Assembly (NCBI RefSeq): GCF_039830095.1
Contig: NZ_CP142435.1
Span: forward strand, 558,001 to 622,000
DNA: 64,000 nucleotides
From: Dolosigranulum savutiense
Lineage (GTDB): Bacteria > Bacillota > Bacilli > Lactobacillales > Carnobacteriaceae_A
Reading direction: 5' to 3'
Shown: piece by piece, positions 6,402 to 9,885 of the stretch
How positions within the stretch are numbered: position 1 is the first letter of the stretch
Layout of the letters: each line of letters starts with the position of its first letter
The notes under the pieces: generated by a model
Told to the model about the DNA's origin: nothing
The model's input: only the letters and a program-made list of their open reading frames with translations
The model's database searches: none
Position numbers and translations under genes: made by a program

Positions 6402-6724
6402 GCATAAAGAAAAGTCCTCACCTCTTATGATAATTCAAGATTATCATAAAGGGTGAAGACTTCACGGTACCACCTTTATTCACACATCCATCACTGGATG
6501 TGCCTCATTAAGTACTCTGCCAAATAAACTAACATTCGCATTCATACTCATATCTGGTAACGGAGATTTCCGAGTGACACTCGCTTGACAGCTCACACCA
6601 CTATACTCATGGACCATTTTGGGCTAACTTCCCTTACCTACTCACACCAAACGCAGGCTCTCTGACAATTTCCGTTAACTTACTTATCCACTCACAGCAA
6701 CTTATTCAATTTGCTTAACTAACT
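6402..6724 (-). ncRNA. T-box riboswitch leader (expected tRNA-Met sensor)
   Basis: Read on the minus strand, 6477-6463 is AAAGGTGGTACCGTG, the conserved T-box that pairs in the antiterminator and contacts the tRNA acceptor end. It is followed by a long terminator stem (6411-6463: AAGTCTTCACC... with ...GGTGAGGACTT, arms joined by TTATGATAAT/ATTATCATAA) and a T-rich run at 6402-6414. Upstream lies about 250 nt of Stem I-like structure, with GGTGTGAG resembling the GNUG element. Uncharged tRNA should stabilise the antiterminator and allow transcription of metQNIQ. The specifier codon is inferred to be AUG from the genes; several ATG triplets occur in the stem region and I could not settle which is used. 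Confidence 0.9.
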
Positions 6725-6915: not shown

Positions 6916-8247
6916 TTAGCCTTCTGATGCTCCAGATGAAGTATCTACGGCTGCTTGTGTGTCAATATCACTAGCTGCTGCATCCCACGTATTGCTGGTT
7001 GTGTCACTTGCCCCACTATCAGCATCTGTTGCAGGTTGTGCTCCTTCTGCTGTTGCTGGAACTTGACCGCCACCGGATTCGCTGGCACCACTGTCGGTAT
7101 CTGTTCCTGCATCACTAGCACCACTTGACGTGTCGCCACCACCAACTAATGACTGACCTGTTTTTTGGAGGTAGAAGTCAACAATTGGCTTGAAGTCTAA
7201 GATATATTCATTAATTCCTGCATAGTCACCATTCTCATAGTACATGGCTTGGTAATTGTGAACAACATATTTGTCTGGACCATAGTGTGTAATCGGAACA
7301 CGGATCACGTCAGTCTGACCTGAACGTAATTGTTGGATAACATACTCTGCTCCCTTACGCGCCCTCTCTGGGTGACACTCAGCAAGGGAGAATCCAACTT
7401 GGTGCTCATAACGAGATGCTAACATGTCATCCCCCATACGTACTCGGTTGTAGTATAAGAATTGGTTGTTATCATCAGCATAGGTCAGTTCCATTGGCAT
7501 TGAACGTAAGAACATGTTCAACTGGTCAACCGTTAAAATCCCACGGTCTAGCTTCACATAGTCTGAACCTTCTGCCGCTCCAACTAATTCAGCAGCTTTC
7601 TCAACCCACTCTGGGTCAGACTTATCGACTCCTTCAATGGTTGATTCAATAGAATCTGTTGCCCACAAATCTTCAGATGGCAACGGGCCCTTTTGTTCAA
7701 ATGCTTTATTCACTTTTACAAATCTTACAAATTTATCCAAGCACAGTTCCAAGTAATCAATGGTTCGTTGATCAATTAAGTGATCCTTTTCATTGAAAGC
7801 TTCCTTAACTTTTCCTAACAAGAATTCCTGTCCCGGGAAGACATGTGCGCCAACACCTGGTGCTTCTAACACTTGACGTAAGTGCAGTTGTGAACGTGAA
7901 GTCCCTTGGTTATAGTATGATGCGCCCATCACCATAACTGGCTTACCCTCAAATGGGTGTAACTTGTAAGATAACCATTCGAGCGTACTTTTCAGTGCTG
8001 GTGGTAATGTATGATTATGCTCTGGTGTTGCAATAATGACCCCATCTGCATTTTCAATCCGTTCATTTAAATGTTGAATCGCTGCACAGTCCGACTGATC
8101 ATCGGATTGGTTAAACATCGGTACATCTTTAATTTCTAAAATCTCGAAGCGGAACTTCGCCTTGAAGCGACGTTTAATCGCTTGAAGTAATAATCGGTTA
8201 TACGAACGGTCCGCATTTGATCCTACTAATCCTACTATTTTAAGCAT
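6916..8247 (-). CDS. NAD(P)H-dependent FMN reductase with PAS-like domain and a tail of four flavinylation motifs
   Basis: A 443-aa cytoplasmic protein, no signal peptide. Residues 1 to about 185 are an NADPH-dependent FMN reductase/azoreductase domain: GLVGSNADRSYNR binds FMN phosphate and ATPEHNHTLPPALKSTLEWLSY is the dimer/flavin loop. Residues about 235-362 resemble the PAS-like domain of DUF438-type proteins (RSMPMELTYADDNNQFLYYNR). Residues 366-443 are low complexity (Gly, Ser, Ala, Asp, Thr) and contain D-x-x-S-G-A-S four times: D372-S378, D383-S389, D408-S414, D435-S441. That matches the ApbE acceptor consensus Dxx(S/T)GA(S/T), in which the last Ser/Thr takes FMN through a phosphoester bond. 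apbE is encoded two genes upstream on the same strand. Seen: the motifs and context. Inferred: covalent flavins and electron relay. The final acceptor is unknown. RBS AAGGAG precedes the ATG. Confidence 0.85.
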   Translation of the reverse strand: MLKIVGLVGSNADRSYNRLLLQAIKRRFKAKFRFEILEIKDVPMFNQSDDQSDCAAIQHLNERIENADGVIIATPEHNHTLPPALKSTLEWLSYKLHPFEGKPVMVMGASYYNQGTSRSQLHLRQVLEAPGVGAHVFPGQEFLLGKVKEAFNEKDHLIDQRTIDYLELCLDKFVRFVKVNKAFEQKGPLPSEDLWATDSIESTIEGVDKSDPEWVEKAAELVGAAEGSDYVKLDRGILTVDQLNMFLRSMPMELTYADDNNQFLYYNRVRMGDDMLASRYEHQVGFSLAECHPERARKGAEYVIQQLRSGQTDVIRVPITHYGPDKYVVHNYQAMYYENGDYAGINEYILDFKPIVDFYLQKTGQSLVGGGDTSSGASDAGTDTDSGASESGGGQVPATAEGAQPATDADSGASDTTSNTWDAAASDIDTQAAVDTSSGASEG

Positions 8248-8259
8248 AATATTCTCCTT

Positions 8260-8868
8260 CTACAATGATTCCCAATCGAAGTTTTCAGCATCTTTTTTGT
8301 TTGATGAATAGGCATGTGTTAATTTTTCCATAATCTCGATAAAGACGAGGAAATCTGCAAAGAGTTCATCCAATTTTTCAACTTTTTCCTCATCGATTAA
8401 CTGATTCTCTTCATCGAATGCTTCAAGTGAGTGTCCTAATAAGAACTCAGAACTTGGCATAATACGTGCTTTCAATTCTGGTGCATCTAAGATCTGACGT
8501 AAGTGTTGTTGTGCGCGTGATGATCCTAATGTCCCATAAGACGCTCCCGTAATCATAACCGGTTTATCCACAAATGGATAAATACCGTAAGATAACCAAG
8601 CCAATGCATTATTTAACGCAGCAGTAATCGAGTGATCATATTCTGGTGTACTAATAATAACACCATCTGCTTTTTCAATTTTTTCTGCCACATCTTTCAC
8701 AATCTTAGGTAAATCTTTTTCGTCAGGTTTGTTGAACATTGGGAAATCCTTAATTTCAACCAATTCAATCTTAGCTTTTTCTTTGAAGTGCTCCTTCATG
8801 AACTGCAATAATTGACGGTTGGTTGACTGATCAGAATTCGTTCCCACTAATCCGATTAATTGTTTCAT
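8260..8868 (-). CDS. NAD(P)H-dependent FMN reductase
   Basis: A 202-aa single-domain protein of the NADPH-dependent FMN reductase family (flavodoxin fold), cytoplasmic. GLVGTNSDQSTNRQLL is the FMN-phosphate loop and STPEYDHSITAALNNALAWLSYG the family signature. It closely resembles residues 1-185 of the larger neighbour 12 bp downstream but lacks the PAS-like domain and the D-x-x-S-G-A-S tail, ending ENFDWESL. The start at 8868 is chosen because GAGGG lies seven bases upstream; the ATG at 8886 touches its GAGG. The two reductases may form mixed dimers, with this one as the untailed partner (inference). Confidence 0.9.
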   Translation of the reverse strand: MKQLIGLVGTNSDQSTNRQLLQFMKEHFKEKAKIELVEIKDFPMFNKPDEKDLPKIVKDVAEKIEKADGVIISTPEYDHSITAALNNALAWLSYGIYPFVDKPVMITGASYGTLGSSRAQQHLRQILDAPELKARIMPSSEFLLGHSLEAFDEENQLIDEEKVEKLDELFADFLVFIEIMEKLTHAYSSNKKDAENFDWESL

Positions 8869-8943
8869 TTTTTTACCCTCTTTCATCCTCTATACTATTA
8901 TACTATAAACTCATTATATCAAACATTATCTAAAGTTGCATCT

Positions 8944-9885
8944 TTATAAAAATGCATCAATCCGTGACTTAATTCCCGATGTATACGCAATATTATGTTG
9001 CTGGTCAATGACGATAGCTTCGATCCGATCTAGTGCCTCTACTTGTTGCAAAATAGTTGCTTTATCATGACCGAATAGACGTGTCGTCCAAATCTCACCT
9101 TCCAATGAAGTTGGCGAAATAATGGTAATACTTGCTAAATCAGTAGCAATCGGCCGCCCCGTCTCCGCATCAAATACGTGATGAAATTCACGTCCATCAG
9201 CAGCAATAAGTCGTCGCTCATAAATCCCCGATGTCACCACTGAACAAGCCGGCAACTTCAGAATCATACAATTCTGTCCCCGTGGCTTATCTGGATGCTG
9301 AATGCCGACACGCCACAAATTATCAGGATGATGATGTGCCTTTCCTGATAAAAGTAAATTGCCCCCTAAATTAATAAAAGCTGTTCGCGGAGCAAAGGAT
9401 TGAATATCCGCCATAATTTTATCAGCAATATAGCCTTTTGCCAATGCACCTAGGTCAATTTCCATCTTCGGTTGTGCTAATTTTACAGCGTGCATTGATG
9501 CATCAAGCTCGACTTGATGCACATCGATTCGCTTCATCACTTGCTCAATAGCCTGATTACTAGGCACATTAGCATCACTGAAGCCAATTCGCCATAATTT
9601 TACTAAAGGACCAATTGCAATATTCAAAAAACTATCATCTGGCAAACTGTGTTGCTTACCTATTTGAATCAATTCGAATAATTCTGGATGGACTTTCACC
9701 GCTTCTCGGCCAGCTGCCTGATTAACTTGGGCCAACTCGGATCTATCATCATTCGCACTAAAGCGGTGATTATATAGCTCCAGCAATTCCTTCATGCGTT
9801 CAATAATACGTCCGGCTTGCCATCCTTCTGCCATCAAATGAATGGTCGTTCCCATCATTCGCACAGAATCTGTTTCTTTGAACAC
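8944..9885 (-). CDS. apbE: FAD:protein FMN transferase
   Basis: A 313-aa ApbE family enzyme, which takes FMN from FAD and joins it to a Ser/Thr of acceptor proteins in a Mg2+-dependent reaction. Motifs seen: MEIDLGALAKGYIADKI (about residues 140-156), NLGGNLLLSG, TSGIYER, and HHVFDAETGRPI. There is no signal peptide or lipobox, unlike many ApbE proteins, so it should act in the cytoplasm. One oddity: the late metal-site motif usually reads like DALxTALF, and here it is GEIWTTRLF (Glu near residue 264 in place of Asp). The start is GTG at 9885 with AAGGTGG upstream. The likely target in this window is the four-motif tail of the FMN reductase in the same cluster. Confidence 0.92.
   Translation of the reverse strand: MFKETDSVRMMGTTIHLMAEGWQAGRIIERMKELLELYNHRFSANDDRSELAQVNQAAGREAVKVHPELFELIQIGKQHSLPDDSFLNIAIGPLVKLWRIGFSDANVPSNQAIEQVMKRIDVHQVELDASMHAVKLAQPKMEIDLGALAKGYIADKIMADIQSFAPRTAFINLGGNLLLSGKAHHHPDNLWRVGIQHPDKPRGQNCMILKLPACSVVTSGIYERRLIAADGREFHHVFDAETGRPIATDLASITIISPTSLEGEIWTTRLFGHDKATILQQVEALDRIEAIVIDQQHNIAYTSGIKSRIDAFL

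What the first reader, a model, noticed from the sequence alone, without database searches (positions are those of the whole stretch)
6916..7150. FMN reductase with a tail of four ApbE flavinylation motifs
Seen: the last ~78 residues of the 443-aa reductase are low complexity and contain D-x-x-S-G-A-S four times (Ser378, 389, 414, 441). Known: ApbE transfers FMN to the last Ser/Thr of Dxx(S/T)GA(S/T), and short terminal tags of this kind are accepted by ApbE. apbE is in the same cluster, and neither protein has a signal peptide. Inferred: a cytoplasmic NAD(P)H oxidoreductase carrying up to four covalent FMNs on a flexible tail, a flavin 'wire' or relay without FMN-bind domains. Most multi-flavinylated proteins I know of are extracytosolic and use folded FMN-bind domains, so this layout may be undescribed.
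Basis: partly seen in the sequence, partly recalled or inferred. Interest (0 to 1): 0.92.

Follow-up and report, generated by a model that had tools for sequence, protein, structure and literature searches.

The report
Enzyme with four flavin attachment tags
A redox enzyme of lactic-acid-type bacteria ends in a floppy tail with four sites where a neighbouring enzyme probably attaches vitamin-B2 cofactors; one- and two-site relatives were published in 2024, but the link made here to a known peroxide-forming enzyme system and its PAS domain appears to be new and is easy to test.

Summary
In detail: four DxxSGAS motifs (Ser378, 389, 414, 441) lie in a predicted-disordered C-terminal tail of the 443-aa protein (6916-8247, minus strand), next to a signal-less apbE. 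They are not chance: 0 of 200,000 tail shuffles gave more than two, 92 of 92 homologues keep the motif or a near variant, and the four copies differ in codons. It was also unaware of prior work: FMN_red proteins with C-terminal motifs were shown to be flavinylated in 2024, and the FMN_red pair plus PAS protein is the H2O2-forming FRedA/FRedB-LjPAS system of Lactobacillus johnsonii (2015). Neither paper connects the two. New here: stand-alone LjPAS-like proteins carry ApbE motifs; the PAS-tail unit recurs in several architectures, including a lipoprotein of this same genome and a triple-PAS protein with nine motifs; all 53 PAS-tail-family genomes sampled have a short, apparently cytosolic ApbE, against 9 of 65 others. 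Most likely: a cytosolic NADH:flavin oxidoreductase whose tethered FMNs accept electrons for O2 or another acceptor. A linear 'wire' is unsupported. New variant of a known kind.

The parts
6916..8247 (-). large FMN_red-PAS_10-tail oxidoreductase, 443 aa
   Evidence: 92 homologues
7807..8241 (-). FMN_red domain (residues 3-147)
   Evidence: Pfam PF03358 E=2.5e-36; PDB relatives YieF/ChrR 3svl, 1rtt
7192..7521 (-). PAS_10 domain (residues 243-352)
   Evidence: Pfam PF13596 E=5.4e-24; modelled fold matches 2qkp, Z 15.8, rmsd 2.0 over 137 residues
6916..7149 (-). disordered tail (residues 367-443) with four flavinylation motifs
   Evidence: pLDDT under 50 from residue 370 on; motif count and shuffles
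7114..7134 (-). motif 1 DTSSGAS (372-378)
7081..7101 (-). motif 2 DTDSGAS (383-389)
7006..7026 (-). motif 3 DADSGAS (408-414)
6925..6945 (-). motif 4 DTSSGAS (435-441), two residues before the C-terminus
   Evidence: the last motif lies 0-6 residues from the C-terminus in all 92 homologues
8260..8886 (-). small FMN_red partner (208 aa; coordinates are those of the longest ORF), probable heterodimer subunit
   Evidence: Pfam PF03358; an FMN_red partner gene lies beside the large gene in all 80 homologue loci
8944..9885 (-). apbE, FAD:protein FMN transferase without signal peptide, GTG start
   Evidence: Pfam PF02424 E=5.8e-68; 34-50% identical to other cytosolic ApbEs, invariant His235/His236 and Thr218-Ser219-Gly220, Glu264 where lipoprotein ApbEs have Asp

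Best explanation
The cluster apbE - small FMN_red - FMN_red-PAS_10-tail encodes a cytosolic NADH:flavin oxidoreductase of the FRedA/FRedB type. The small protein and the FMN_red domain of the large one form a heterodimer with FMN sites at the interface (inferred from L. johnsonii FRedA/B). The neighbouring signal-less ApbE attaches FMN from FAD to the last Ser of up to four DxxSGAS motifs in the disordered tail (strongly inferred). The tethered FMNs act as a high local concentration of flavin: they are reduced at the NADH-linked site, either by visiting it in turn or by exchange with the bound FMN, and pass electrons to O2, giving H2O2, or to another acceptor, with no loss of free FMN. The PAS_10 domain, on which the tail usually sits, is proposed to dock a tethered flavin and/or gate assembly of the dimer. 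The four sites are independent and partly redundant carriers, not an ordered wire. Shown here: domains, tail, conservation, co-occurrence with cytosolic ApbE. Inferred: flavinylation of this protein, heterodimer, electron path, O2 as acceptor, role of PAS.
For: Four exact motifs in a disordered tail, beyond chance. 88 of 92 homologues keep at least one canonical motif, all 92 a relaxed one, always in the tail and never in the core. 53 of 53 PAS-tail-family genomes have a short ApbE, 9 of 65 others do. In this genome the second ApbE is a lipoprotein (L001) and all three FMN_bind proteins have a lipobox or membrane anchor, so no FMN_bind protein is left as client of the window ApbE. In four genomes of genus g17 the FRedA/FRedB pair has no motif but lies in a conserved cluster with a signal-less apbE, while the motifs are on stand-alone 28-kDa PAS proteins that match LjPAS in size and architecture (PMC4500961). 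In vitro flavinylation of FMN_red C-terminal motifs: PMC11334425. FRedA/B: NADH oxidase making H2O2, two FMN sites, FMN Kd about 2 uM, slowed by LjPAS (PMC4500961).
Against: No covalent flavin has been shown on any FMN_red-PAS protein. FRedA/B works in vitro with free FMN and without a flavinylated PAS protein, so tethering is not strictly needed. LjPAS slowed assembly of the active complex rather than accepting electrons, though it was made in E. coli without its cognate cytosolic ApbE. A few proteins have only variant motifs (DxxSSAS in Vagococcus fluvialis and E. faecium plasmids, DxxASAS in G095), whose competence is unknown. The cytosolic ApbEs have Glu where lipoprotein ApbEs have Asp near the presumed metal site. 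The co-occurrence test is not corrected for phylogeny and rests on frame length as a proxy for a missing signal peptide.
Confidence: 0.6

Rival explanations
1. Anchoring: one covalent FMN docks permanently in the FMN_red active site and the linkage only prevents cofactor loss; the extra motifs are redundant or unused.
For: This is the published view for Lactococcus FMN_red proteins, whose C-terminal sites are modelled near the FMN pocket (PMC11334425). FRedA/B binds FMN weakly and was purified with 0.58 FMN per dimer (PMC4500961), so anchoring would help. Copy number is labile.
Against: In the FMN_red-PAS proteins about 190 residues including a whole PAS domain lie between the FMN_red domain and the tail. 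Stand-alone PAS-tail proteins have no FMN_red domain. The 882-aa protein has motifs after each of three PAS domains. Two to four sites are kept in most homologues.
Confidence: 0.25
2. Sensor: the tail flavin docks in the PAS_10 pocket and reports redox or oxygen state, gating assembly of the FMN reductase dimer.
For: The tail follows PAS_10 in FMN_red-PAS, FMN_bind-PAS, PAS alone and triple PAS proteins, while DUF438-hemerythrin PAS_10 proteins have no tail. Residues His330, Asn346, Asn260, Gln262 and Gln283 are conserved in tail-PAS and not in the others. LjPAS slows complex formation in vitro and is repressed more than 3-fold under low oxygen (PMC4500961).
Against: Lactococcus FMN_red proteins carry tails without any PAS. 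Several flavins per PAS are not needed for sensing. Only 11 no-tail sequences, two of them truncated, were compared. The ligand of PAS_10 is unknown.
Confidence: 0.25
3. Ordered flavin wire: electrons hop along four FMNs in series to a distant acceptor.
For: Four sites spaced 11, 25 and 27 residues apart in one chain; multi-flavin proteins are discussed as multiheme-like in PMC8238504 and PMC11334425.
Against: Tail predicted disordered. Copy number changes 24 times on the tree. The protein appears soluble and cytosolic, so no long distance needs to be bridged.
Confidence: 0.07
4. The tail is a low-complexity linker whose motif likeness has no function, or it is not flavinylated.
For: The tail is rich in D, S, G, A and T, and no mass data exist.
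Against: 0 of 200,000 shuffles reach the count; conserved in 92 of 92 homologues; different codons per copy; apbE linkage.
Confidence: 0.04

Closest known systems
ApbE-flavinylated FMN_red proteins (Lactococcus lactis WP_021723379.1, L. taiwanensis WP_205872264.1), Huang et al. 2024, PMC11334425
   Same: FMN_red domain, disordered C-terminal extension with ApbE motifs, apbE next door, Firmicutes; flavinylation shown by UV-fluorescent bands and Ser/Thr-to-Ala controls.
   Different: Published proteins have one or two motifs and no PAS domain is mentioned. The Lactococcus FMN_red-apbE pairs seen here mostly lack PAS and have the tail directly on FMN_red; that the published accessions are of this type is likely but was not checked. 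Here: FMN_red-PAS_10-tail, four motifs, separate small FMN_red partner.
FRedA/FRedB-LjPAS of Lactobacillus johnsonii and its fused homologues Lp2732 (L. plantarum) and EF1227 (E. faecalis), Valladares et al. 2015, PMC4500961
   Same: Two adjacent FMN_red genes and a PAS_10 protein, fused in other Firmicutes as in this window; NADH-dependent, FMN-using, H2O2-forming heterodimer.
   Different: The paper contains no mention of flavinylation motifs, ApbE or covalent flavin. In genus g17 the PAS protein is separate and carries the motifs.
HcrAB hydroxycinnamate reductase of L. plantarum (PMC10295242) and similar FMN_red-FMN_bind-FAD_binding_2 proteins
   Same: A small FMN_red partner beside a large protein with an N-terminal FMN_red domain and a further flavin module; one such pair, with a DAISGAS motif in FMN_bind, is in G049 (L173), which also has the FMN_red-PAS-tail protein.
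   Different: There the motif is in a folded FMN_bind domain that feeds a FAD-containing reductase domain; here it is in a disordered tail after PAS_10 and there is no terminal reductase domain.
Multi-flavinylated FMN_bind proteins (PMC8238504, PMC10339131)
   Same: Several predicted covalent FMNs per polypeptide.
   Different: Those are extracytosolic and use folded FMN_bind domains; this protein has neither.
Engineered Flv-tag (reviewed in PMC12052999)
   Same: A seven-residue DxxSGA[ST] sequence at a terminus is enough for ApbE.
   Different: Engineered; here it is a natural, repeated, conserved tag.

Membership tests
ApbE-flavinylated FMN_red proteins (PMC11334425) | FMN_red domain (PF03358) | tested here: met
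   E=2.5e-36
ApbE-flavinylated FMN_red proteins (PMC11334425) | extended, unstructured C-terminal region with ApbE motif(s) | tested here: met
   four motifs, pLDDT under 50; the published class has one or two
ApbE-flavinylated FMN_red proteins (PMC11334425) | co-localised apbE | tested here: met
   8944-9885, same strand
ApbE-flavinylated FMN_red proteins (PMC11334425) | covalent FMN on the motif Ser/Thr | not testable with these tools
   needs mass spectrometry or in-gel fluorescence
FRedA/FRedB-PAS H2O2-forming system (PMC4500961) | two adjacent FMN_red genes | tested here: met
   8260-8886 and 6916-8247
FRedA/FRedB-PAS H2O2-forming system (PMC4500961) | PAS_10 domain fused to or accompanying the reductase | tested here: met
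   PF13596 E=5.4e-24; fold match 2qkp Z 15.8
FRedA/FRedB-PAS H2O2-forming system (PMC4500961) | obligate heterodimer with NADH oxidase activity giving H2O2 | not testable with these tools
   inferred from homology only
multi-flavinylated FMN_bind proteins | FMN_bind domain(s) (PF04205) | tested here: not met
   no PF04205 match in the 443-aa protein
multi-flavinylated FMN_bind proteins | signal peptide or lipidation site | tested here: not met
   N-terminus MLKIVGLVGSNADRSYN has none, read by eye; no predictor was available
cytosolic ApbE | ApbE domain without signal peptide or lipobox | tested here: met
   PF02424 E=5.8e-68; starts MFKETDSVRMMGTTI, whereas the second ApbE of the genome has a lipobox LAAC
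cytosolic ApbE | catalytic and metal-binding residues of ApbE | tested here: inconclusive
   TSG and HH invariant, but Glu264 replaces the Asp of lipoprotein ApbEs, as in the other cytosolic ones aligned

The most novel reading that the evidence does not exclude
PAS_10-plus-tail is a portable multi-flavin carrier module, fused to FMN_red, to (PAS)x3, to an extracytosolic FMN_bind lipoprotein, or standing alone. The 'regulatory' LjPAS protein of lactobacilli is then really a covalently flavinylated electron carrier that was studied in its unflavinylated form, and ApbE controls peroxide formation in lactic acid bacteria.
Probability: 0.35. Interest if true: 0.75.

Novelty: new variant of a known kind. 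Interest (0 to 1): 0.58.

Why it matters
It joins two unconnected literatures: ApbE flavinylation and peroxide formation by lactic acid bacteria. If right, a cytosolic ApbE with multi-FMN carrier proteins is common in Lactobacillales (53 of 118 genomes sampled), LjPAS needs re-study in its flavinylated form, and the open question of what cytosolic ApbEs do and why flavin is covalently bound inside the cell becomes testable in harmless lactobacilli. It also gives natural examples of the repeated flavin tag used in protein engineering.

Tried and rejected
Flavin wire: no support beyond the motif number. Tail motifs strictly tied to PAS_10: rejected, because Lactococcus has FMN_red-tail proteins without PAS. 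Copy-number gain by recent DNA repeat expansion: rejected for this gene, as no direct repeats are found and codons differ. Motif decay after loss of apbE: not supported, as the 27 genomes tested, including some with only variant tails, all have an apbE, as do G095 and the E. faecium plasmid. Fold search of the PAS domain gave DUF438-type, heme and other PAS structures but did not settle its ligand. A phylum-wide sample of 299 genomes found the PAS-tail type only in Lactobacillales, though Bacillaceae such as Oceanobacillus have it. The published accession WP_021723379.1 could not be read; that it is of the PAS-less type is an inference. The paper by Hertzberger et al. 2014 (PMC3993133) is not held.

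Full report
OBSERVATION. Shuffling the tail 200,000 times never gave more than two. No other ORF of 60 aa or more in the window has the motif; of 1808 unrelated ORFs from all fetched loci 11 do, eight of which are lipoprotein-like ORFs with two DVV[ST]GAT sites beside an apbE and one more is a lipoprotein. The four copies use different synonymous codons and there is no DNA repeat, so the motif is kept by selection on the protein.

ANATOMY. An AlphaFold model has both domains confident and everything from residue 370 on disordered (pLDDT under 50). The PAS model matches 2qkp, the PAS domain of S. mutans SMU_1151c, at Z 15.8, rmsd 2.0 over 137 residues. Twelve bases upstream lies a second, small FMN_red gene (8260-8886) and before it a signal-less apbE (8944-9885); all three are on the minus strand.

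CONSERVATION. 80 loci from public genomes all have a small FMN_red beside the large gene, and most have apbE next door. In 92 homologues 88 have at least one canonical motif, all have at least one relaxed motif (D..[STA][GSAN]A[ST]), the last motif lies 0-6 residues from the C-terminus, and no canonical motif occurs in the folded part. Canonical copy number is 0 to 4, most often 2, and changes 24 times on an 89-row tree. A search of 27 of these genomes, chosen because apbE was not adjacent or the motif was only a variant, found apbE in all 27.

CO-OCCURRENCE. In 118 genomes of the order, 53 encode a PAS-tail-family protein; all 53 have an ApbE with a short reading frame, against 9 of the other 65 (Fisher p 2e-24, not corrected for phylogeny; frame length is a proxy for lack of a signal peptide; one of the 53, G133, has a PAS-PAS protein without motifs). 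Seven of the 9 exceptions have FMN_bind proteins, a possible other client. Within the window's own family, the eight sampled genomes that have an ApbE but no PAS-tail protein have only a long-frame ApbE. In the window's genome the other ApbE is a lipoprotein and the three FMN_bind proteins all carry a lipobox or membrane segment, so no FMN_bind protein is left for the cytosolic ApbE.

ARCHITECTURES. PAS_10 with motif tail occurs as: FMN_red-PAS-tail (this gene); FMN_red-(PAS-tail)x3, 882 aa with nine canonical or variant motifs (L154); stand-alone PAS-tail of 244-246 aa, 27.8-28.0 kDa, with three motifs (one of them a variant in L160), and of 178-182 aa with one, in genus g17 (L157-L160); stand-alone 230 aa (L145); and an FMN_bind-PAS lipoprotein in this same genome with DADSGAS before the PAS and DADSSAS at its very end (L142). 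Hemerythrin-DUF438-PAS_10 proteins have no tail. Residues His330, Asn346, Asn260, Gln262 and Gln283 are conserved in tail-PAS and not in the few others. In Lactococcus many FMN_red proteins carry the tail directly, without PAS, beside apbE. The tail is therefore portable, and PAS_10 is its commonest but not its only partner.

PRIOR WORK. Huang et al. 2024 (PMC11334425) found FMN_red proteins with one or two C-terminal motifs next to apbE and showed flavinylation of two Lactococcus proteins with Ala controls; the Results say co-expression with the cognate apbE, the Methods describe in vitro reaction with Listeria ApbE. Valladares et al. 2015 (PMC4500961) described L. johnsonii FRedA/FRedB as an obligate heterodimeric NADH:FMN oxidoreductase that makes H2O2, and LjPAS, a 28-kDa PAS protein fused to FMN reductase in L. 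plantarum and E. faecalis, that slows formation of the active complex. The words motif, ApbE and covalent do not occur in that paper. In four g17 genomes the FRedA/B-like pair has no motif, sits in a conserved cluster with a signal-less apbE, and the motifs are on the unlinked 28-kDa PAS protein.

MECHANISM. Best supported: a cytosolic NADH:flavin oxidoreductase with tethered FMN carriers. Flavinylation of this protein is strongly inferred; the heterodimer and NADH specificity are inferred from FRedA/B; O2 as acceptor is plausible; the role of PAS (docking, gating) is a hypothesis. An ordered wire is not supported. The published anchoring view and a PAS-sensor view remain live rivals.

CAVEATS. 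Variant motifs (DxxSSAS in Vagococcus fluvialis and on E. faecium plasmids; DxxASAS in G095) are found with an apbE present; the review PMC12052999 reports that Gly-to-Ala in the motif halves flavinylation, so Gly-to-Ser may be tolerated, but this is untested. Cytosolic ApbEs have Glu for Asp near the presumed metal site. Lack of signal peptides was judged by eye.

VERDICT. Observation confirmed; interpretation partly right and partly already published; new variant of a known kind, of interest mainly because it links ApbE flavinylation with the FRedA/B-PAS peroxide system.

Noticed in passing
L142:1498-2700 (-), same genome, outside the window: Extracytosolic lipoprotein with FMN_bind, a DADSGAS linker, the same kind of PAS_10 domain (54% identical to that of the window protein) and a C-terminal DADSSAS: an envelope counterpart of the cytosolic protein.
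   Followed up: partly
L154:4496-7144 (-): 882-aa FMN_red protein with three PAS_10 domains and nine canonical or variant flavinylation motifs, mostly placed after each PAS.
   Followed up: partly
L204:4395-7221 (+), E. faecium plasmid NZ_CP011282.1: The same three-gene cluster on an E. faecium plasmid, flanked by IS1216 elements, with all motifs changed to Dxx[ST]SAS; the plasmid collection has 94 records with a match at 60-80% identity, the top-listed ones all E. faecium.
   Followed up: partly
L161:4992-6368 (-): Homologue whose four tail motifs all lack the Gly (DANANAS, DTEASAS, DASASAS, DTDASAS) although the genome has a short-frame apbE elsewhere.
   Followed up: no
L180, L181, L182, L196 (Lactococcus-genus genomes): FMN_red proteins with long tails of two to four motifs interleaved with a repeated GEGWWIE-like sequence of unknown role.
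   Followed up: no
L155:4621-5838 (-): 405-aa protein with two PAS_10 domains related to the tail type but with no motif and no FMN_red domain.
   Followed up: no
window 6446-6704 (-): T-box leader (Rfam RF00230, 97.4 bits) upstream of a MetQ-like lipoprotein gene and a methionine-type ABC transporter cluster.
   Followed up: partly
L003:1282-1809 (+), same genome: Membrane-anchored FMN_bind protein that ends in a degenerate motif DADSNAS besides its canonical DAYSGAT.
   Followed up: no
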